From Actinomycetota bacterium (GTDB taxonomy: Bacteria > Actinomycetota > Acidimicrobiia > Acidimicrobiales > VFJN01), in assembly GCA_009886035.1 (NCBI GenBank), contig VFJN01000054.1, positions 1 to 40,055 of the forward strand: a DNA stretch of 40,055 nucleotides, written 5' to 3'. The notes under the pieces are model-generated. The model saw nothing but the letters and a program-made list of their open reading frames with translations, was not told where the DNA came from and did not search any database. Each line of letters starts with the position of its first letter. Positions within the stretch are counted from its first letter, which is position 1. This document shows, one piece after another, positions 6,512 through 18,603 of the stretch. The position numbers and the translations under genes are program-made.

Positions 6512-7099
6512 TCACGGCTCCAGCGCCGCCCGCAGGAGCGACAGCAGCTCATCGCGCCGTCGCAGCAGCGACGGGAGGGTGGGTTCCTCGCCGAAGGCCC
6601 GGAGGACGTCGACCTCCGTCGCCATCCCCGTCACCATCGAGTACGCCGCGAGCAGCAGGAGCCGCGGCTCATGATGCTGCATCCGCCCGGCATCCATCTC
6701 CGCCTGGAGGAACGCAGAGGCCCGCTCGATGAGAGGCTCGATGCGGGCCAGGAGACGGGTGGACGAGGGCGGCCCCAGGCGGGCCACCTCGCGCAAGACG
6801 CCGAGTATCGCCGGATGGCGAGCGGCCAGGCGGAACATGGCCCGCACCATGGCGTCGACCCGGCCGAACCCATCCGACGCGCCGTCCAACCCGCGGACGA
6901 GACGATAGGTCACCTCGTCGGCACACCGATCGACCACGGCCTCGAGCAGCGCATCCTTGGAAGGGAACCAGTAGAGGATCGTCTGCTTGCGGATCCCGAT
7001 CTCACCGGCCAGGTCGTCGAGTGACGTGGCTTCGTAACCGCGGGTGCCAAAGGCCGTCATGGCCTCCTCGAGGATCCGCTCCGCCGTGGTGTCTGCCAC
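6512..7099 (-). CDS. TetR/AcrR family transcriptional regulator
   Basis: 195 aa; MADTTAERILEEAMTAFGTRGYEATSLDDLAGEIGIRKQTILYWFPSKDALLEAVVDR is a classic TetR HTH. Confidence 0.92.
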   Translation of the reverse strand: MADTTAERILEEAMTAFGTRGYEATSLDDLAGEIGIRKQTILYWFPSKDALLEAVVDRCADEVTYRLVRGLDGASDGFGRVDAMVRAMFRLAARHPAILGVLREVARLGPPSSTRLLARIEPLIERASAFLQAEMDAGRMQHHEPRLLLLAAYSMVTGMATEVDVLRAFGEEPTLPSLLRRRDELLSLLRAALEP

Positions 7100-7114
7100 T
7101 CCACCTCCCGTCCT

Positions 7115-7134
7115 TGTCTACCAAATGGTAGACA
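7115..7134. promoter_or_regulatory. Perfect inverted repeat TGTCTACCA-AA-TGGTAGACA, likely TetR operator between divergent genes
   Basis: Read directly: 9-bp arms, 2-bp spacer, between the TetR start (7099) and the acyl-CoA reductase start (7142). Confidence 0.75.
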
Positions 7135-7141
7135 GACCTGC

Positions 7142-9511
7142 ATGATTCACGAGGCCCTCGACGGAAAACGCATCGCCATCACCGGCGGTACGGGTTTTCT
7201 CGGGACCGCGCTGATCGAGCGACTCCTGCGGTCGATCCCCGGATGTGAACTCGTCCTGCTCATCCGACCGGGGAAGCGATCCTCGGTGGAACAGCGGGCC
7301 AAACGGGAAATCTTCAGCAACGATGCCTTCGACCGCCTCCGCCAGGAGCACGGCAAGGAGGGCTTCGCCGCCCTAGTGGCGGCACGGGTCACCCCGATTG
7401 CCGGTGACGTGGGCACCGACGGCCTGGCCCTCGACCCCCACGGTCGCGCCGCGCTCGAATCGTGCGACATCGTGATCCACTCGGCGGCCACCGTGTCCTT
7501 CGACTCCCCCCTCGACAGCGCCGTGGAGGTGAACCTGCTTGGCCCCACCCGCATCGTGCGCACGCTGCAGGAGCTCAACCTCACCCCCCACCTCGTGTCG
7601 GTGTCTACCTGCTACGTGGCCGGCAACCGCCGCGGCGCGGCGCCGGAAATCCCCGTCCACGAGAGCCCGTTCTTCATCGACGTGGACTGGCGTCGCGAGG
7701 TGGACGGGGCCCGACAATCACGCGTGCTGGCCGAGGCCGACAGTCGCCGCCCCGACCATCTCACCCGCTTCCGCAAAGAGGCCCGCACCGAACTCGGCGC
7801 GGCCGGCATCCCGGCGTTGGCCGCCAAAACCGAGCAGCGTCGCAATGCCTGGGTGAAGGCGCAGATGGTGGAAGCCGGACGGGCCCGAGCCGCCTCCCTC
7901 GGCTGGCCCGATGCCTACGCCTATACCAAGGCCCTCGGCGAACGGGCCCTCCTCCAAAATCGCGGCCCCATCCCCGTGTCCATTGTCCGCCCCTCCATCA
8001 TCGAGTCGGCCCTCCTCGAGCCCTTCCCGGGATGGATCCGCGGCTTCCGAATGGCCGAGCCGGTGATCGTCTCCTACGCCCGCGGCCTCCTCAAGGAGTT
8101 CCCCGGCGTCCCCGAAGGCATCATCGACGTCATCCCCGTGGATCTCGTGGTCGCCGCCATCATCGATGCCGCCGCCGGACCGGTGCCCGATGCCCCCGCG
8201 ATCACCCAGGTGGCCTCCGGTTCGGTGAACCCCCTGCACTACCGCCACCTCGTGGACATGGTGCGGGAGTTCTTCACCACCCACCCGATCTACGACCTCG
8301 AGGGCCAGCCCATCATCGTGCCGGAATGGTCCTTCCCCGGCCGCGGGCGCGTGCAACGCCAGCTCGAACGAGCCCAGACCGCCATCGACAAGGGCGAAAA
8401 ACTCCTCCAGTCGTTGCCCCTGCGCGGCAAGCAAGCGGCCTGGGCCGCCACGCTGGAGGAAAAACGCGAGGAAGTGGAGCGGGCCCTCGCCTACGTGGAG
8501 CTCTACGGCGCCTACGCCGAATGCGAAGCGATCTATGGGGTCGACAACCTGCTCAGCCGCTGGGACCGCCTGGACCCGGCCGATCAGGCCACGTTCTGTT
8601 TCGACCCCCGGGTGATCGACTGGAGTTGGTACGCCCCCAACGTGCACCTTCCCTCGGTGGTGGAACACGCCCGGGTGCGCACCACCCCGGGGGGCCGACA
8701 GGGCGAGAAACGGGAGGACCGCCTCCGGAGTCAGGTGCTCGATCCCTCCCGCCACTTTGCCGCCTTCGACCTCGAGAACACCCTCATTGCCTCCAACGTG
8801 GTGGCCTCCTACTCCTGGCTGGCCACCCGCCGTCTTCCCCAGGAAGACCGGATCCGCTTCGTGCTCCAGACGCTCAAGGAGGCGCCCGCCCTGCTCGCCG
8901 CCGATCGGCGCGACCGAAGCGATTTCCTGCGCCAGTTCTACCGGCGTTACGAAGGGGCCGACGCCGCCCAACTCGAAGCCGACGCGCGGGAAATGTTTAG
9001 CGACCTCATCCTCATCAAGTCCTTTCCGGCAGCCATCCGACGGGTGCGTGAACACCGCCGTCTCGGCCACCGAACCGTGCTCATCACCGGCGCCCTCGAC
9101 GTGGCCATCGGTCCGCTGCGCCCCCTCTTCGACGACATCATCGCCCCCTCGCTCGCCATCCGCCCCGACGGCACCTACCGGGGCGAACTCACCGCCGTGC
9201 CCCCCACCGCCGAGGCCCGCGCCCAGGCCCTCTACGACTACGCCGAGGACCACGGCTTCGACGTGGCCGAGGGCGTGGCCTACGCCGATTCCACCTCGGA
9301 TCTTCCGATGCTCGAAGCCGTGGGCTTTCCCGTGGCGGTCAACCCCGAAACCCGCCTCGCCGCTCTGGCCCGCAAGCGCGGCTGGCTGGTGGAGCACTTC
9401 GACCCCGCCCACGGCGTCGACACCCCCCTCCTTCCTATCGGCCCAGCCTGGGGTCGCCCCCGCCGACGCCGGGTGGGCAAGGTCGCCACCGCCACGAGGG
9501 CTCTGCGATGA
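7142..9511 (+). CDS. Fusion: fatty acyl-CoA reductase-like NAD(P)-binding domain + HAD-IB-like domain
   Basis: 789 aa; N-terminus GKRIAITGGTGFLGTALIERLLRSIPGCELVLLIR plus YTKALGERALLQ; C-terminus FAAFDLENTLIASNVV...VLITGALDVAIGPLRPLFDDIIA...GVAYADSTSDLPMLEAVGFPVAVNPETRL. Confidence 0.85.
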   Translation: MIHEALDGKRIAITGGTGFLGTALIERLLRSIPGCELVLLIRPGKRSSVEQRAKREIFSNDAFDRLRQEHGKEGFAALVAARVTPIAGDVGTDGLALDPHGRAALESCDIVIHSAATVSFDSPLDSAVEVNLLGPTRIVRTLQELNLTPHLVSVSTCYVAGNRRGAAPEIPVHESPFFIDVDWRREVDGARQSRVLAEADSRRPDHLTRFRKEARTELGAAGIPALAAKTEQRRNAWVKAQMVEAGRARAASLGWPDAYAYTKALGERALLQNRGPIPVSIVRPSIIESALLEPFPGWIRGFRMAEPVIVSYARGLLKEFPGVPEGIIDVIPVDLVVAAIIDAAAGPVPDAPAITQVASGSVNPLHYRHLVDMVREFFTTHPIYDLEGQPIIVPEWSFPGRGRVQRQLERAQTAIDKGEKLLQSLPLRGKQAAWAATLEEKREEVERALAYVELYGAYAECEAIYGVDNLLSRWDRLDPADQATFCFDPRVIDWSWYAPNVHLPSVVEHARVRTTPGGRQGEKREDRLRSQVLDPSRHFAAFDLENTLIASNVVASYSWLATRRLPQEDRIRFVLQTLKEAPALLAADRRDRSDFLRQFYRRYEGADAAQLEADAREMFSDLILIKSFPAAIRRVREHRRLGHRTVLITGALDVAIGPLRPLFDDIIAPSLAIRPDGTYRGELTAVPPTAEARAQALYDYAEDHGFDVAEGVAYADSTSDLPMLEAVGFPVAVNPETRLAALARKRGWLVEHFDPAHGVDTPLLPIGPAWGRPRRRRVGKVATATRALR

Positions 9512-10662
9512 AGGCACTCGTGTTTTCCCGCCAGCCCGCCAAGTTCGCCGCCGCCATGGTGGCGGGTCGGCTGCGGCCCGGCGGCGGTGCCCGAGTGGGG
9601 CCGCTCTCGCTGCGAGATATAGAACCGCCTGCCCTCCCCGGCCCGGGATGGTTGCGGGTCCGACCCCGCCTCGCCGGTATCTGCGGCTCCGATCTCGCCA
9701 CCATCGATGGCACCTCATCGCGCTGGTTCGAGCCGATCGTCTCCTTCCCCTTCACGCCCGGCCACGAGGTGGTGGGCGATCTCGACGACGGCACTCGGGT
9801 GGCGGTGGTGCCCGTCCTCAGTTGCGTCACCCGCGGCTTCTCCCCGGCCTGCCCCGCCTGCGCGGCCGGCCGGATCAACCACTGCGAACGCATCGCCTTC
9901 GGCGACGTGGAACCGGGGCTGCAATCCGGGTTCTGTGAAAGCACCGGCGGGGGCTGGTCCACCGTGATGGTCGCCCACGAAAGCCAGTTGGTGCGCCTGC
10001 CCCCCGATCTCACCGACGAAGCCGCCGTGTTGGTAGAACCGGCCGCCTGTGCGGTCCACGCCGCCTCGCGGGTAGACAACGACAACATTGCGCTGATCGG
10101 CAGCGGCACCCTCGGCCTGCTCACCATCGCCGCCCTGCGAGCGGCCCGACCCCAGGCGGTCATCATCGCCACCGCCAAGTACCCGCACCAGCGGGAACTC
10201 GCCACCACCCTCGGGGCCACCACGGTGGTGGACCCCGGCGAACTAGACCGCGCCGTGCGCGCCCGATCCGGAACCATGCGTCTCGACAACGGCCAACTCG
10301 GCGGTGGCATCGCCACCGTCGTCGATTGCGTCGGCTCAGCGTCCTCCATCGCCCAGGCCCTGCGGATCACCGCCCCCGGCGGCACCATTCATGCCGTGGG
10401 CATGCCGGGGGTCACCACCGTGGACCTCACGCCACTGTGGCAACGAGAAATAGCACTGCAGGGTGCCTACGCCTATGAGCGGGCCGACTTCGATGGGGCC
10501 ATCGAACTGGTGGCCACCCTCGATCTCGGCCGCCTCGTGAGTGCCACCTACCCCCTCCATCGCTATGAGCAAGCCATCGCCCATGCGGCCCACGCGGGTT
10601 CCCGCGGTGCCGTGAAGATCGCCTTCGACCTCCGGTCGGAACGAGAGAGAGACACCATCTGA
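9508..10662 (+). CDS. Zinc-dependent medium-chain alcohol dehydrogenase
   Basis: 384 aa; GICGSDLATIDG, GHEVVGDLDDG, Cys-rich CPACAAGRINHCE, Rossmann IALIGSGTLGLLTIAAL; ATGA overlap with preceding CDS. Confidence 0.85.
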   Translation: MKALVFSRQPAKFAAAMVAGRLRPGGGARVGPLSLRDIEPPALPGPGWLRVRPRLAGICGSDLATIDGTSSRWFEPIVSFPFTPGHEVVGDLDDGTRVAVVPVLSCVTRGFSPACPACAAGRINHCERIAFGDVEPGLQSGFCESTGGGWSTVMVAHESQLVRLPPDLTDEAAVLVEPAACAVHAASRVDNDNIALIGSGTLGLLTIAALRAARPQAVIIATAKYPHQRELATTLGATTVVDPGELDRAVRARSGTMRLDNGQLGGGIATVVDCVGSASSIAQALRITAPGGTIHAVGMPGVTTVDLTPLWQREIALQGAYAYERADFDGAIELVATLDLGRLVSATYPLHRYEQAIAHAAHAGSRGAVKIAFDLRSERERDTI

Positions 10663-12257
10663 TGCCCCGCCCCGGCTTTGTCCTAGACGTAGACCGCTCC
10701 ACGCCACCCATCCTCTTTCACCACGGCGAGACCCTTCGCCTCGAACGACTGCCCGCTGGCCGCAGCCGGGTGCTCTATCCCGGCGAGCCGCTTGAGGCCC
10801 TCGATGATCCCGACGCCGCCATCCGGCTGGCGCTCGACAATCCTCTGGGTGATTCGGCGCCGCTGCGGGCGCTTCTCACGCCCGGCATGAAGCTCACGAT
10901 CTGCTTCGACGACATCAGCCTGCCCCTCCCTCCCATGCGTCGACCCGATGTGCGCCAGCGCGTCATCGAAGCGGTCCTCGACCTCGCCGCCGCCGCCGGC
11001 GTGGACGACGTGCACCTCATCGCCGCTTTGGCCCTGCACCGACGCATGACCGAAGCCGAACTGCGCCATGCCGTGGGCGACCGGGTCTACGACGCCTTTG
11101 CCCCCGATGGTCTTCTCTACAACCACGACGCCGAGGACCCCGACAACCTGCTCTTTATCGGCGAAACCAAACACGGCGAGGAGGTGGAGATCAACAAGCG
11201 AGCCGCCGAGAGCGACCTCATCGTCTACGTGAACATCAACCTCGTATCCATGGACGGAGGATGGAAGTCAACCGCCACCGGACTCTCGTCCTACAAGTCG
11301 TTGCGCCACCACCACAACGTGGCCACGATGCTGAAGTCGCGCAGTTTCATGGACCGCCACAAGAGCGAACTGCACTCCTCCAACTGGCGCATGGGCGAGG
11401 TTTTGAAGAACAGCGGCATCAAGGTGTTCCAGATCGAGACCACCCTCAACAACGACACCTTCGGCACCTCAGGACCCATGTCGGTGCTTCAGAAGCGCGA
11501 GTGGGAGTGGACCGCCCGTGACCGGGCCAGCTTCGTGGGGATGAAGGCGGGCCTTGATCGCCTCCCGGTGAAAGCCCGTCGGAAGATTTTCAACTCGTGG
11601 CAGGCCCCCTACGGCATCACCTCGGTACAGGCCGGTGAGGTGGAAGCCGTGCACGAAGTGACCACCGCCAACGTCTTCAAACAGCAGCTGGTGGAGATAC
11701 AGGGCCAGACCGACATCCTCACGATGGGGCTTCCGTACATTTGCCCGTACAACGTGCATTCGATCATGAACCCGATCCTGGTCATGTGCCTCGGCCTCGG
11801 GTACTTCTTCAACATGTACCGGGGCAACCCCCTCGTGCGGGAGGGAGGCGTGTTGATCATGAGCCACCCCACACCGTGGGAGTTCCACCCGGTGCACCAT
11901 CCGAGTTACATCGATTTTTTCGAGCAGGTATTGGCCGATACCACCAACCCACTGGAGATCGAAGCCAAGTACGAGAAGCAGTACGCCGAGGACGAGTGGT
12001 ACCGCCACCTCTACCGCACCAGCCACGCCTACCACGGCGTCCACCCGTTCTACATGTGGTACTGGGGAAGCCATGCGCTGTCCCACCTCGGCAAGGTGAT
12101 CATCGTGGGCGGCGAAGCCCGCTCGGTACGACGCCTCGGCTTCACCCCCGCATCCACCCTCAACGATGCGCTGGAGATGGCTGCCGATGTGGTGGGTCGG
12201 GATGGCACCATCACCCACCTCCACAACCCGCCCATTGTCATGGCCGACGTGGTGTAG
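10662..12257 (+). CDS. LarA-like (DUF2088, nickel-dependent lactate racemase superfamily) protein
   Basis: 531 aa; LTICFDDISLPLPPMRRPDVRQRVIEAVLDLAAAAGVDDVHLIAALALHRRMTEAELRHAVG...YNHDAEDPDNLLFIGETKHGEEVEINKRAAESDLIVYVNI...GGWKSTATGLSSYKS; start overlaps previous stop. Confidence 0.75.
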   Translation: MPRPGFVLDVDRSTPPILFHHGETLRLERLPAGRSRVLYPGEPLEALDDPDAAIRLALDNPLGDSAPLRALLTPGMKLTICFDDISLPLPPMRRPDVRQRVIEAVLDLAAAAGVDDVHLIAALALHRRMTEAELRHAVGDRVYDAFAPDGLLYNHDAEDPDNLLFIGETKHGEEVEINKRAAESDLIVYVNINLVSMDGGWKSTATGLSSYKSLRHHHNVATMLKSRSFMDRHKSELHSSNWRMGEVLKNSGIKVFQIETTLNNDTFGTSGPMSVLQKREWEWTARDRASFVGMKAGLDRLPVKARRKIFNSWQAPYGITSVQAGEVEAVHEVTTANVFKQQLVEIQGQTDILTMGLPYICPYNVHSIMNPILVMCLGLGYFFNMYRGNPLVREGGVLIMSHPTPWEFHPVHHPSYIDFFEQVLADTTNPLEIEAKYEKQYAEDEWYRHLYRTSHAYHGVHPFYMWYWGSHALSHLGKVIIVGGEARSVRRLGFTPASTLNDALEMAADVVGRDGTITHLHNPPIVMADVV

Positions 12258-12261
12258 CGAC

Positions 12262-13170
12262 GTGGTGAACCTGCCCCGGGTGCCAAAACTCCCGTTCCCC
12301 TATTCCACCCCCACGGTGCCCGACACCGTCGAGGCGCTTCCCGCCCCCCGCCGCCTCGGGGCCCACTACCAAACAGACTGGGCTCGCCGTTACCCGGCCC
12401 GGTTGGCGCGTGTCGTGTTTCTCGAGGCCGTCTTGCGTCCGGCGGTGGCCGTTCTCGGTGCCCCCGAGCGCGATGGGATCGACCGGCTCGAGGGTCTCAC
12501 CGATGGTCCTGTGATCTTCGCCCCCAACCACCACAGCCACCTCGACACGCCCACCATGCTCACGTCGATCCCGGAACCGTGGCGGTACAAGATATTCGTG
12601 GGGGCCGCCGCCGACTATTTCTTCCGAACCCACCTCAGCGCGGCGGCGTCGGCACTGGCCCTGGGAGCCATCCCTATCGAACGTTCCAAGGTCAGTCGTC
12701 GATCCGCCGACGAAGCGGCCGCCTTGATCAACCAGGGCTGGTCGATGCTCATCTTCCCGGAGGGGGGCCGATCCCCCGACGGCTGGGGCCAACCGTTTCG
12801 CGCCGGCGCGGCCTATCTGGCCAACCGCTGCTCGGTCCCGGTGGTTCCCGTCCATCTTGAGGGCACGGCCAAGATCCTTCGCAAGGGACAGCGGCGGCCT
12901 ACCCCCACCCACGTGCGCGTCACCTACGGCACCCCCTTGCGCACCGAGGACGGGGAGAGCACCACTCGCTTCGCCGAGCGCATTGAGCGATCGGTGGCCG
13001 AACTGGCCGACGAAGCCACCACCAACTGGTGGCAATCTCGCCAGCGGGCCGCCCTCGGCACCACCCCATCGCTCTCAGGCCCCGATGCTCCGGCATGGCG
13101 ACGGGCCTGGGCCCTGGGCGATCGATCCCGCAAGCGCCGCCGCCAAACCCGCTCCTGGCCCAAGCTCTAG
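12262..13170 (+). CDS. 1-acyl-sn-glycerol-3-phosphate acyltransferase-like (PlsC family)
   Basis: GPVIFAPNHHSHLDTPTML (HX4D), LALGAIPIERSKVSRRSADEAAALINQGWSMLIFPEGGRSPDGWGQPFRAGAAYLANRCSVPVVPVHLEGT; GTG start at 12262 or 12265, 4 nt after the LarA-like stop. Confidence 0.85.
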   Translation: MVNLPRVPKLPFPYSTPTVPDTVEALPAPRRLGAHYQTDWARRYPARLARVVFLEAVLRPAVAVLGAPERDGIDRLEGLTDGPVIFAPNHHSHLDTPTMLTSIPEPWRYKIFVGAAADYFFRTHLSAAASALALGAIPIERSKVSRRSADEAAALINQGWSMLIFPEGGRSPDGWGQPFRAGAAYLANRCSVPVVPVHLEGTAKILRKGQRRPTPTHVRVTYGTPLRTEDGESTTRFAERIERSVAELADEATTNWWQSRQRAALGTTPSLSGPDAPAWRRAWALGDRSRKRRRQTRSWPKL

Positions 13171-13233: not shown

Positions 13234-13734
13234 ATGGTAAGACGCAGTCGGTTCGGGTTGGGTTTGGCGACGGTGCTCCTCATGGGCTCGCTGGCCCTAA
13301 CGGCATGTTCGTCGACGGATGAGGGCACCACGGTGACCGTCACCCACGGCGAGGTGCCCGCTCCCACCCTCGTCGACAACGGGGTACCGGGCAACTCTGT
13401 AGGCGATACCCGACTCTTTCGCTTCGACGGCACCGACGAGGAGGGTGAGGTGGTGCACACCGATTGGGTGATGACCACCACCGCCTTGGATGTAGCCCCC
13501 GATGGGTTCGAATCGCGCGTCGCTACCGGCGTGTTCGCCTTCGGTGATGTGTCGAACCAGTTGATTCTCGAGGGCGCTGCCTACTACCCCGGCGCCGGAG
13601 CCACCCTGAAGCCCTCCGCGTCCACCATTCGATCCATCATCGGCGGGTCCGGCACCTACGCAGGAGCCACCGGGTGGGTGAAGTCCACTCACCTCGACGA
13701 CGGCACGTGGACTCACGTGTTCCACATCCAATAG
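13234..13734 (+). CDS. Lipoprotein with allene-oxide-cyclase/dirigent-like beta-barrel domain
   Basis: 166 aa; signal peptide and lipobox LALTACSS; ILEGAAYYPGAGATLKPSASTIRSIIGGSGTYAGATGWVKSTHLDDGTWTHVFHI; AAAGGA upstream of the ATG. Confidence 0.65.
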   Translation: MVRRSRFGLGLATVLLMGSLALTACSSTDEGTTVTVTHGEVPAPTLVDNGVPGNSVGDTRLFRFDGTDEEGEVVHTDWVMTTTALDVAPDGFESRVATGVFAFGDVSNQLILEGAAYYPGAGATLKPSASTIRSIIGGSGTYAGATGWVKSTHLDDGTWTHVFHIQ

Positions 13735-16816: not shown

Positions 16817-17179
16817 ATGCTCATCGGCATCGACCACGTGCAGCTCGCCATGCCGGCCGGCGGAGAAGACCGAGCCGAGGCGTTCTACGCGGGCGTGCTC
16901 GGGCTATCCCGAGTACCCAAGCCCGAGCCGCTCGCATCCCGAGGCGGCTGCTGGTTCCAGGGGCCAAGCGTCGAGGTCCACCTCGGCGTCGAGGCCCCGT
17001 TCGCCCCCGCCCGCAAGGCCCACCCGGCCTTCTTGGTGCGCAACTACGACGGATTGCTGTCGGCGCTGCGCGCGTCCGGTACCGAGGTCCGCCCCGACGA
17101 TGCACTCCCCGGCGTCCGTCGGTGCCACGTCGACGACCCCTTCGGCAACCGCCTCGAGCTCATCGCCGCTGAGCCCTAG
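16817..17179 (+). CDS. VOC/glyoxalase family protein
   Basis: MLIGIDHVQLAMPAGGEDRAEAFYAGVLGLSRVPKPE...CHVDDPFGNRLELI. Confidence 0.85.
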   Translation: MLIGIDHVQLAMPAGGEDRAEAFYAGVLGLSRVPKPEPLASRGGCWFQGPSVEVHLGVEAPFAPARKAHPAFLVRNYDGLLSALRASGTEVRPDDALPGVRRCHVDDPFGNRLELIAAEP

Positions 17180-18603
17180 TCGGTGCCGGGGCGGCGCTCG
17201 GACTCGTCGCGGGCTTTCACCTTGCCGCCGGGGTAGGTCTTGGCGAGCTCCTCGGCGGTGGGCGTGCGCGGCTTTCGGGCTTCGGCGGGAAGCAGCTTGG
17301 TGATGGCCTTCATGATCTTCTTGGTGTCGGCATCGGGCGACACTCCCTTCAGGGCGGCTACCGCCTCACCCACCTTGATCCTGATCCTGGGTGGGTGACC
17401 GATGGCGAGGAGGTTCGGCAGGCGCTCGCTGCGCGGCCACACCTTCTCAGTACCCCAGAGGCCGATGGGGATCACCGGTGCCCCCGTCATGGCGGCGAGC
17501 TTGGCGGCCCCCCAGCGACCCTTCAGCACCGGATCGAAGAAGGCCGGCCCGCGCGGGATCGTGCCCTCGGGCATGAGCGCGACGAGTTCACCGGCGGCCA
17601 GGGCGGCGGCCGCCTCGGCCAGCGGTTCGTCGGATCCCGTGCCGCGCTCAACCCGAATGCCGCCCATGGCCTTCGCCACCTGGCCCACGATCGGGGCGTC
17701 GAACACCTCTTTCTTGCCCAGGAAGCGCACCGGGCGGCCGCGCTGGGCGAGGGCAACGGCCAGAGCCAGCGGGTCGAAGTAGCTGCGGTGGTTACCCACC
17801 ACGATCGCCGGTCCGGTGGCGGGGATGTTCGATACACCGGCGATGTCGAAGCGGGCGTAGGGGATGAGTTCAGGCCGCAGGAGGGCCAGCACCGCCTGCT
17901 GGGGCTCGATGCCCAGCACCGGAAGCTTGGGCACGCCGGCGGGGACGTCGAGGTGCACCATCGGCCACCGCCGCACGAGAGCCACAACGGCGAGACGGGG
18001 ATCTGGATTCACCACCACCGGGTGTTTGACCGCCGAAAGCATCGGGATGTCGTAGTAGCTGTCGGAGTACGCCCAGCTCTCGGTCATGGACACCCCAGCG
18101 TCCGTAGCCCACGCCTGGATGGCCCGCAGTTTGCCCGGGCCCCACACGAACTCACCGTCGAGCGTGCCGTCGTACACGCCGTCCTTCTCGCCGTACCGGG
18201 TGGCCACGACGGCATCGAAACCCAACGCTTCCGCCAGTGGCTTCACGAGGTCGAACGGCGTCGTCGTCGCCAGCACGAGCGGGCGGCCGGCAGCACGGTG
18301 CTCCTCGAAAATCGGCCGGGCGAACGGCTGCAGGCTGGCCGCCAGCGCTTCGGCGGCGAGTTGGCCCGCCTCCTGCACCTGCTCGCGCACCCATCCCGAG
18401 GCGAACCGAACGGCCCGCTTGGTGACCTCCATCGAGGGCCGATTCTCCCCAAAGAGGTCATACAGCCGATAGACGAGCCCCTCGCCGGGAATGGATCGGT
18501 CGGTTACCCCCGCCTTCTTCAGCGCCTCCCCGATGATCGGCCCCGACGCCCCCCGCAAGAGGGTCCGGTCCAGATCGAAAAAGGCGGCACCGGACACTCC
18601 CAC
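17176..18603 (-). CDS. Fusion: HAD-IB family hydrolase + PlsC-like 1-acylglycerol-3-phosphate acyltransferase
   Basis: 475 aa; GAAFFDLDRTLLRGASG...SWAYSDSYYDIPMLSAVKHPVVVNPDPRL then GPAIVVGNHRSYFDPLALA...GGIRVERGTGSD...LVALMPEGTIPRG. Confidence 0.9.
   Translation of the reverse strand: MGVSGAAFFDLDRTLLRGASGPIIGEALKKAGVTDRSIPGEGLVYRLYDLFGENRPSMEVTKRAVRFASGWVREQVQEAGQLAAEALAASLQPFARPIFEEHRAAGRPLVLATTTPFDLVKPLAEALGFDAVVATRYGEKDGVYDGTLDGEFVWGPGKLRAIQAWATDAGVSMTESWAYSDSYYDIPMLSAVKHPVVVNPDPRLAVVALVRRWPMVHLDVPAGVPKLPVLGIEPQQAVLALLRPELIPYARFDIAGVSNIPATGPAIVVGNHRSYFDPLALAVALAQRGRPVRFLGKKEVFDAPIVGQVAKAMGGIRVERGTGSDEPLAEAAAALAAGELVALMPEGTIPRGPAFFDPVLKGRWGAAKLAAMTGAPVIPIGLWGTEKVWPRSERLPNLLAIGHPPRIRIKVGEAVAALKGVSPDADTKKIMKAITKLLPAEARKPRTPTAEELAKTYPGGKVKARDESERRPGTD

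What the first reader, a model, noticed from the sequence alone, without database searches (positions are those of the whole stretch)
6512..13170. Candidate undescribed lipid system: TetR plus acyl-CoA reductase/HAD fusion, Zn-ADH, LarA-like protein and PlsC-like acyltransferase
Four plus-strand genes are nearly gapless: ATGA overlap at 9508, TGATG overlap at 10662, and a 4-nt gap at 12258-12261. A TetR gene lies divergent. Seen directly: gene order and couplings. Established: acyl-CoA reductases make fatty aldehydes/alcohols, PlsC enzymes transfer acyl groups, and LarA-family proteins racemise or epimerise hydroxyacids. Inference: together they may make or remodel an unusual hydroxy-, ether- or wax-type lipid. 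I know of no characterised pathway with this set.
Basis: partly seen in the sequence, partly recalled or inferred. Interest (0 to 1): 0.7.

Follow-up and report, generated by a model that had tools for sequence, protein, structure and literature searches.

The report
Conserved nickel-enzyme operon for unusual membrane lipids
A gene set kept together across several deep branches of Actinomycetota joins a fatty-alcohol-making enzyme, glycerol-lipid acyltransferases and a nickel-cofactor enzyme that lacks one of its two usual catalytic residues; it most likely builds ether-linked membrane lipids, by a step for which no enzyme is known in these bacteria.

Summary
The genes, the overlaps and the divergent TetR are real. 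The set is not local. FAR-HAD lies upstream of this LarA in all 103 flanked loci where LarA is at least 52% identical, covering Acidimicrobiia, Rubrobacteraceae and other actinomycetotal families. PlsC follows in 99 of 99 loci outside Rubrobacteraceae. There, PlsY overlaps or abuts FAR-HAD instead, and in five of those genomes it is the only PlsY found. One family carries larE-larB-larC in the same run. LarC is in 44 of 47 genomes with this LarA and 0 of 7 class-mates without it. A palindrome (TCTACCA-nn-TGGTAGA) sits upstream in 57 of 60 TetR-linked loci and 0 of 30 unlinked ones.

The LarA is not an ordinary racemase. It keeps the cofactor lysine, the nickel histidine and one catalytic histidine; the second is Asn in 101 of 101 sequences. 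Its nearest solved structures are 'single catalytic histidine' LarA proteins.

Best reading: biosynthesis of 1-O-alkyl (ether) glycerophospholipids. FAR makes the fatty alcohol, acyltransferases acylate glycerol phosphate, the nickel enzyme makes glycerol C2 reactive. The pathway class is moderately supported; the LarA chemistry is inference. Rubrobacter, a known mixed ether/ester lipid producer, has the operon but no Ger marker, AGPS orthologue or wax synthase by these searches.

The parts
6512..7099 (-). TetR-family regulator, divergent from the operon
   Evidence: PF00440 E 6e-13; linked to the operon in 60 of 90 loci, elsewhere upstream or downstream of PlsC
7115..7134 (.). Predicted TetR operator, perfect 9-nt inverted repeat TGTCTACCA-AA-TGGTAGACA between TetR and FAR-HAD
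   Evidence: TACC-n2-6-GGTA found in the 200 bp upstream of FAR-HAD in 57/60 TetR-linked and 0/30 unlinked loci, about 0.9% in shuffled sequence
7142..9511 (+). Fatty acyl-CoA reductase (about residues 3-522) fused to HAD-IB phosphatase domain (about 540-738)
   Evidence: PF07993, PF12710; TIGR01490 at cut-off; aligns with fatty acyl-CoA reductase 7eoz over residues 3-522, E 1e-67; TGxTGFxG and YxxxK conserved, HAD motif I DxE or DxD
9508..10662 (+). Zn-dependent medium-chain dehydrogenase, nearest NCBIfam models act on secondary alcohols of polyols or threonine (all far below cut-off); absent from 45 related loci
   Evidence: in 45 loci FAR-HAD directly abuts LarA with gaps of at most 143 bp
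10662..12257 (+). LarAH14/15/16-type protein, predicted nickel-pincer nucleotide enzyme with a single catalytic histidine
   Evidence: NF052592 895.6 bits; H126, K202, H218, D84 and N193 invariant in 101 sequences; AF2 pLDDT 91.8, best PDB matches 9q3k and 9q3j; only LarA homologue found in its genome
12262..13170 (+). PlsC-like acyltransferase (start uncertain; GTG 12262 or upstream)
   Evidence: PF01553 E 7e-18; HX4D and FPEG motifs conserved; downstream of LarA in 99 of 99 flanked loci outside Rubrobacteraceae with the close LarA

Best explanation
A TetR-controlled operon for glycerophospholipids with an ether-linked chain (1-O-alkyl, 2-acyl). Proposed steps: (1) the FAR domain reduces a fatty acyl thioester to a fatty alcohol; (2) PlsY, or the cell's ordinary glycerol-phosphate acyltransferase, makes 1-acyl-glycerol-3-phosphate; (3) the LarA-type enzyme, with its nickel-pincer cofactor and one catalytic histidine, takes a hydride from C2 of the glycerol unit, making a transient ketone that lets the acyl group be exchanged for the fatty alcohol (as AGPS does on acyl-DHAP), and then gives the hydride back; (4) the Zn-ADH, where present, supplies or removes the same ketone or clears aldehyde; (5) PlsC acylates sn-2; (6) the HAD domain removes a phosphate at an undefined point. 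Shown by sequence: the families, conserved order, co-occurrence with NPN cofactor genes, residue pattern and operator motif. Inferred: all substrates, and step 3 above all.
For: Order FAR-HAD, (ADH), LarA, PlsC across several families of the phylum. FAR-HAD, full-length or split at contig ends, in every examined genome with the close LarA and in none of the 7 without it. PlsY at the FAR-HAD start in Rubrobacteraceae, the only PlsY match in G129, G278, G167, G187 and G308, ties the set to acylation of glycerol-3-phosphate. larE-larB-larC directly downstream in three loci (L112, L117, L146), LarC in 44/47 versus 0/7 genomes (LarE similar), and LarB, LarC and LarE in the window's own genome support NPN use. 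FAR + HAD + acyltransferase are also parts of the myxobacterial elb ether-lipid cluster (PMC9131029). Ger marker PF09989: 0 of 11 genomes. Close AGPS orthologue: none in Rubrobacteraceae.
Against: No lipid data for the window's organism or any Acidimicrobiia were found. The window's genome carries an AGPS-like gene elsewhere, so it need not use LarA for ether exchange; that gene, however, also occurs in genomes without the operon. ADH is missing from 45 loci. Three genomes with LarA (G066, G075, G204) show neither LarC nor a LarE over cut-off. The HAD domain has no assigned role. No LarA-family enzyme is known to act on glycerol phosphates, which are not hydroxyacids.
Confidence: 0.48

Rival explanations
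1. The operon makes ether lipids or other alkyl glycerolipids, but LarA does not form the ether bond: it isomerises a small hydroxy compound that becomes a head group or backbone, and the ether bond comes from another enzyme such as the AGPS-like protein.
For: AGPS-like gene in the window's genome and many Acidimicrobiia; known LarA enzymes act on hydroxyacids and sugar acids (PMC7583248; PMC11770544)
Against: No close AGPS orthologue in Rubrobacteraceae, which have the operon; AGPS-like gene also in operon-free genomes G038, G051, G078, G081 and G003; second catalytic histidine lost, which argues against simple racemisation
Confidence: 0.2
2. The operon makes long-chain 1,2-diol or 2-hydroxy lipids: FAR reduces a 2-hydroxyacyl thioester to a diol, LarA sets or moves its 2-hydroxyl, PlsC acylates it.
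For: LarA family chemistry is at the 2-hydroxyl of acids; diol lipids are known in some actinomycetotal and related thermophiles (from memory; one search found no relevant paper)
Against: No hydroxylase in the operon; PlsY partner in Rubrobacteraceae points to glycerol-3-phosphate, not diol, as acyl acceptor; single-histidine active site
Confidence: 0.13
3. The operon feeds fatty alcohol into wax esters or other storage lipids.
For: FAR is the alcohol-forming enzyme of wax ester pathways (PMC11948995); three WS/DGAT matches in the window's genome
Against: No WS/DGAT in any of the eight Rubrobacteraceae searched nor in G139 and G164, all with the operon; does not need LarA, PlsC or PlsY
Confidence: 0.07
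4. A lipid turnover or aldehyde-clearing operon induced by fatty acids through TetR, with LarA working on a breakdown product.
For: TetR linkage with a conserved predicted operator; ADH and HAD fit a catabolic set as well
Against: PlsY and PlsC are biosynthetic; no other gene family was seen to travel with the core in most loci
Confidence: 0.08

Closest known systems
LarAH14/15/16 family (NCBIfam NF052592), LarAH14 of Frankia
   Same: Full-length match over the family cut-off; same lack of the second catalytic histidine reported for groups 14 and 15 (PMC12611868)
   Different: The Frankia protein was assayed without activity; its operon was not described in the text held, so the lipid context is the new part
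Single-catalytic-histidine LarA proteins of Blautia and Streptococcus (9q3j, 9q2u/9q3k)
   Same: Best fold matches, TM 0.72-0.78 by query; one catalytic histidine kept, the second replaced by Asn
   Different: About 20-23% identity; their context was read as carbohydrate metabolism (PMC12611868)
Myxobacterial elb ether-lipid cluster (ElbA-ElbE)
   Same: FAR-type reductase, HAD phosphohydrolase and PlsC-like acyltransferase together; ether lipid product
   Different: ElbD is one protein with acyl-CoA ligase and carrier domains that are absent here; elb has no LarA or Zn-ADH as described (PMC9131029)
Putative 1-O-alkyl-glycerol-phosphate operon of Rubrobacterales (doi 10.1016/j.syapm.2023.126404)
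   Same: Probably the Rubrobacteraceae form of the same gene set (from memory of its abstract)
   Different: Paper not held, so whether it names LarA, or extends beyond Rubrobacter, could not be checked
AGPS and Ger ether-lipid enzymes
   Same: Same kind of product proposed
   Different: Neither is in the operon; Ger marker absent from the 11 genomes searched, AGPS-like gene not tied to the operon

Membership tests
LarAH14/15/16 (NF052592) | Full-length score over the curated cut-off | tested here: met
   895.6 bits against 740; R. xylanophilus copy 868.5
LarA racemase/epimerase (proton-coupled hydride transfer) | NPN-binding residues equivalent to K184 and H200 | tested here: met
   K202 and H218, 101 of 101; a third NPN contact, R75, is L/I/C here
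LarA racemase/epimerase (proton-coupled hydride transfer) | Two catalytic histidines, H108 and H174 | tested here: not met
   H108 kept as H126; the H174 column is Asn193 in 101 of 101
LarA racemase/epimerase (proton-coupled hydride transfer) | Cofactor genes larB, larC, larE in the genome | tested here: met
   L149 (larB, larC) and L150 (larE) from the window's genome; 44 of 47 LarA genomes have LarC
Fatty acyl-CoA reductase (FAR) | NAD_binding_4 domain, GxxGxxG and YxxxK motifs, C-terminal FAR region | tested here: met
   the Sterile domain match is below its cut-off (25.2 against 35.4)
Elb ether-lipid cluster | ElbD: FAR, acyl-CoA ligase, carrier and acyltransferase domains in one protein | tested here: not met
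   Only FAR and HAD domains in the window protein
AGPS ether-lipid pathway | AGPS encoded with or co-occurring with the operon | tested here: not met
   Not in the operon; in operon-free genomes too, and no close orthologue in Rubrobacteraceae
Ger/PlsA ether-lipid route | DUF2229 (PF09989) protein in the genome | tested here: not met
   0 of 11 genomes, while 4 control genomes matched
Ether-lipid producer | Alkyl glycerol ethers in the cell | not testable with these tools
   needs lipid analysis

The most novel reading that the evidence does not exclude
A nickel-pincer nucleotide enzyme with a single catalytic histidine forms the ether bond of bacterial membrane lipids, by transient oxidation of glycerol C2 and acyl-to-alkyl exchange, replacing AGPS and Ger across several lineages of Actinomycetota; this would be the first non-racemase reaction of the LarA family and the first role of this cofactor in lipid synthesis that I know of.
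Probability: 0.2. Interest if true: 0.92.

Novelty: new variant of a known kind. Interest (0 to 1): 0.64.

Why it matters
How bacteria such as Rubrobacter make ether-linked glycerol lipids without AGPS or Ger is open. This work names one conserved gene set, with a defined cofactor and a defined odd enzyme, that can be tested directly. It also gives a metabolic context to a LarA subfamily whose tested member showed no activity, and a predicted operator for its control.

Tried and rejected
Two region requests failed on size. The Rubrobacterales and Ger papers are not held. Searches for diol lipids and for ether lipids in Acidimicrobiia gave nothing useful. Simple racemase reading rejected on the residue pattern. 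Wax-ester reading put low because WS/DGAT does not follow the operon. AGPS as the hidden partner put low because its distribution does not follow the operon. Sigma-70 promoter scan gave no site and terminator counts equal chance. The aconitase and GntR genes downstream are often near, but in varying arrangement and at varying distance, so they were left out.

Full report
OBSERVATION. FAR-HAD 7142-9511 overlaps ADH (9508) by ATGA; ADH overlaps LarA (10662) by TGATG; PlsC follows after 4 nt if it starts at GTG 12262. The frame of PlsC is open back to 12166, so that start is open. Families by Pfam and NCBIfam: TetR; NAD_binding_4 plus HAD-IB; zinc MDR dehydrogenase; Lar_N, with the LarAH14/15/16 model at 895.6 bits against a cut-off of 740; PlsC-type acyltransferase.

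CONSERVATION. Of 108 loci with enough upstream sequence, the script counted FAR-HAD upstream of LarA in 102. L125 is a 103rd: its FAR-HAD is upstream but outside the script's 5.5 kb limit, as the coordinates show. The five without it all carry a remote LarA (about 36-42% in these alignments, up to 45%). PlsC follows in 99 of 113; the 14 without are nine Rubrobacteraceae loci and the same five remote ones. ADH is found close upstream in 56 of 108 by a tight filter; in 45 loci FAR-HAD abuts LarA with a gap of at most 143 bp, so ADH is not part of the invariant core.

TAXA. The named loci are nearly all Acidimicrobiia. Family f45 is taken to be Rubrobacteraceae: the rhodopsin of G157 is identical over 239 residues to PDB 6kfq. 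That 6kfq is from R. xylanophilus, and that its chromosome has the length of G157:C1, is from memory.

RUBROBACTERACEAE VARIANT. In f45 loci PlsY (TIGR00023, PF02660) lies immediately upstream of FAR-HAD, overlapping its start by 4 nt in L122 and close to it in others, and no PlsC follows LarA. In G129, G278, G167, G187 and G308 this is the only PlsY match; G157, G143 and G207 have further, weaker ones. So the set sits with glycerol-3-phosphate acylation. Extra genes between ADH and LarA there include a protoglobin, a MOSC protein and a GAF protein, which I read as insertions.

NICKEL COFACTOR. In L112, L117 and L146 the genes after PlsC are larE, larB and larC, same strand (identities for L112). 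In 54 genomes, LarC is present in 44 of 47 with this LarA family (44 close, 3 remote copies) and 0 of 7 class-mates without it; the seven were taken from the listed negatives, not drawn at random. LarE follows the same pattern. The window's genome has larB and larC on C173 and larE on C184, and this LarA is the only homologue found in it. G066, G075 and G204 have LarA but neither LarC nor a LarE over cut-off; assembly gaps may explain this, since the cofactor genes are often linked, but it was not shown. G112 lacks LarE only.

CO-OCCURRENCE OF FAR-HAD. FAR-HAD, full-length or split at contig ends, is found in every one of the 44 genomes with the close LarA, in none of the seven without it, and in none of the three with a remote LarA; those show only HAD-domain paralogues.

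ACTIVE SITE. Aligned to LarA of L. plantarum through a 17-sequence profile, the window protein keeps D72 as D84, H108 as H126, K184 as K202 and H200 as H218, and has L87 for R75 and N193 for H174. In 101 relatives D84, H126, N193, K202 and H218 never vary. The N193 pairing lies next to a gap in the alignment, so its exact column is less sure than the others, but no histidine is conserved there. Groups 14 and 15 are reported to lack H174 (PMC12611868). The predicted fold (pLDDT 91.8) matches 9q3k and 9q3j best, the single-histidine LarA structures. LarAH14 from Frankia was inactive on seven racemase or epimerase substrates (PMC7583248), and its authors suggest that a one-histidine LarA may move a hydride to another site. 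Racemisation is therefore unlikely, and a hydride-mediated step on one stereoisomer is likelier.

REGULATION. The 42-nt TetR/FAR-HAD gap holds a perfect inverted repeat at 7115-7134. TACC-n2-6-GGTA occurs in the 200 bp upstream of FAR-HAD in 57 of 60 TetR-linked loci and 0 of 30 unlinked ones; base-shuffled sequence gives 0.9%. Related loci are not independent, so the Fisher value printed there overstates the case. The pattern was chosen after seeing the window's palindrome. Binding is predicted, not shown.

WHAT IT DOES. FAR makes fatty alcohol; PlsC and PlsY acylate glycerol phosphates (family knowledge); the elb cluster of Myxococcus, which makes ether lipids, combines FAR, HAD and acyltransferase parts (PMC9131029); FarA-type reductases are linked to ether lipids elsewhere (PMC11948995). 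Rubrobacterales are reported as mixed ether/ester lipid makers (title; the details, and a putative operon in that paper, are from memory). In the Rubrobacteraceae searched there is no Ger marker (four genomes), no close AGPS orthologue (their weak FAD-oxidase hits are glycolate- or lactate-oxidase-like by my reading) and no wax synthase. This makes an ether glycerolipid the best reading. The idea that LarA carries out an AGPS-like exchange through a transient C2 ketone is mine and untested. The window's own genome has an AGPS-like gene and three WS/DGAT matches, so for this organism the rivals cannot be excluded.

NOVELTY. Parts are known families; the combination with an NPN enzyme in lipid context was not found in the held literature, which leaves out most subscription papers. 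Hence 'new variant of a known kind'.

Noticed in passing
G000:C165:5615-7096 (locus L173): AGPS-like gene in the window's genome, best PDB match alkyldihydroxyacetonephosphate synthase 2uuu; orthologues also in Acidimicrobiia without the operon.
   Followed up: partly
G066, G075, G204: Genomes with this LarA but no LarC and no LarE over cut-off; gap in the assembly or a LarA that works without own cofactor synthesis.
   Followed up: no
L129, L144, L145: Remote LarA (about 42% identical) next to a CoA-transferase-like gene (my reading of the sequence) instead of FAR-HAD, in family f49.
   Followed up: no
L123, L125: Protoglobin gene between ADH and LarA in Rubrobacteraceae loci, with a MOSC or GAF gene beside it.
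   Followed up: partly
window 13234-13734: Small ORF after PlsC with a lipoprotein-like start, no Pfam match.
   Followed up: no
window 17176-18597 (-): Second gene with a region 35% identical to the HAD domain of FAR-HAD.
   Followed up: no
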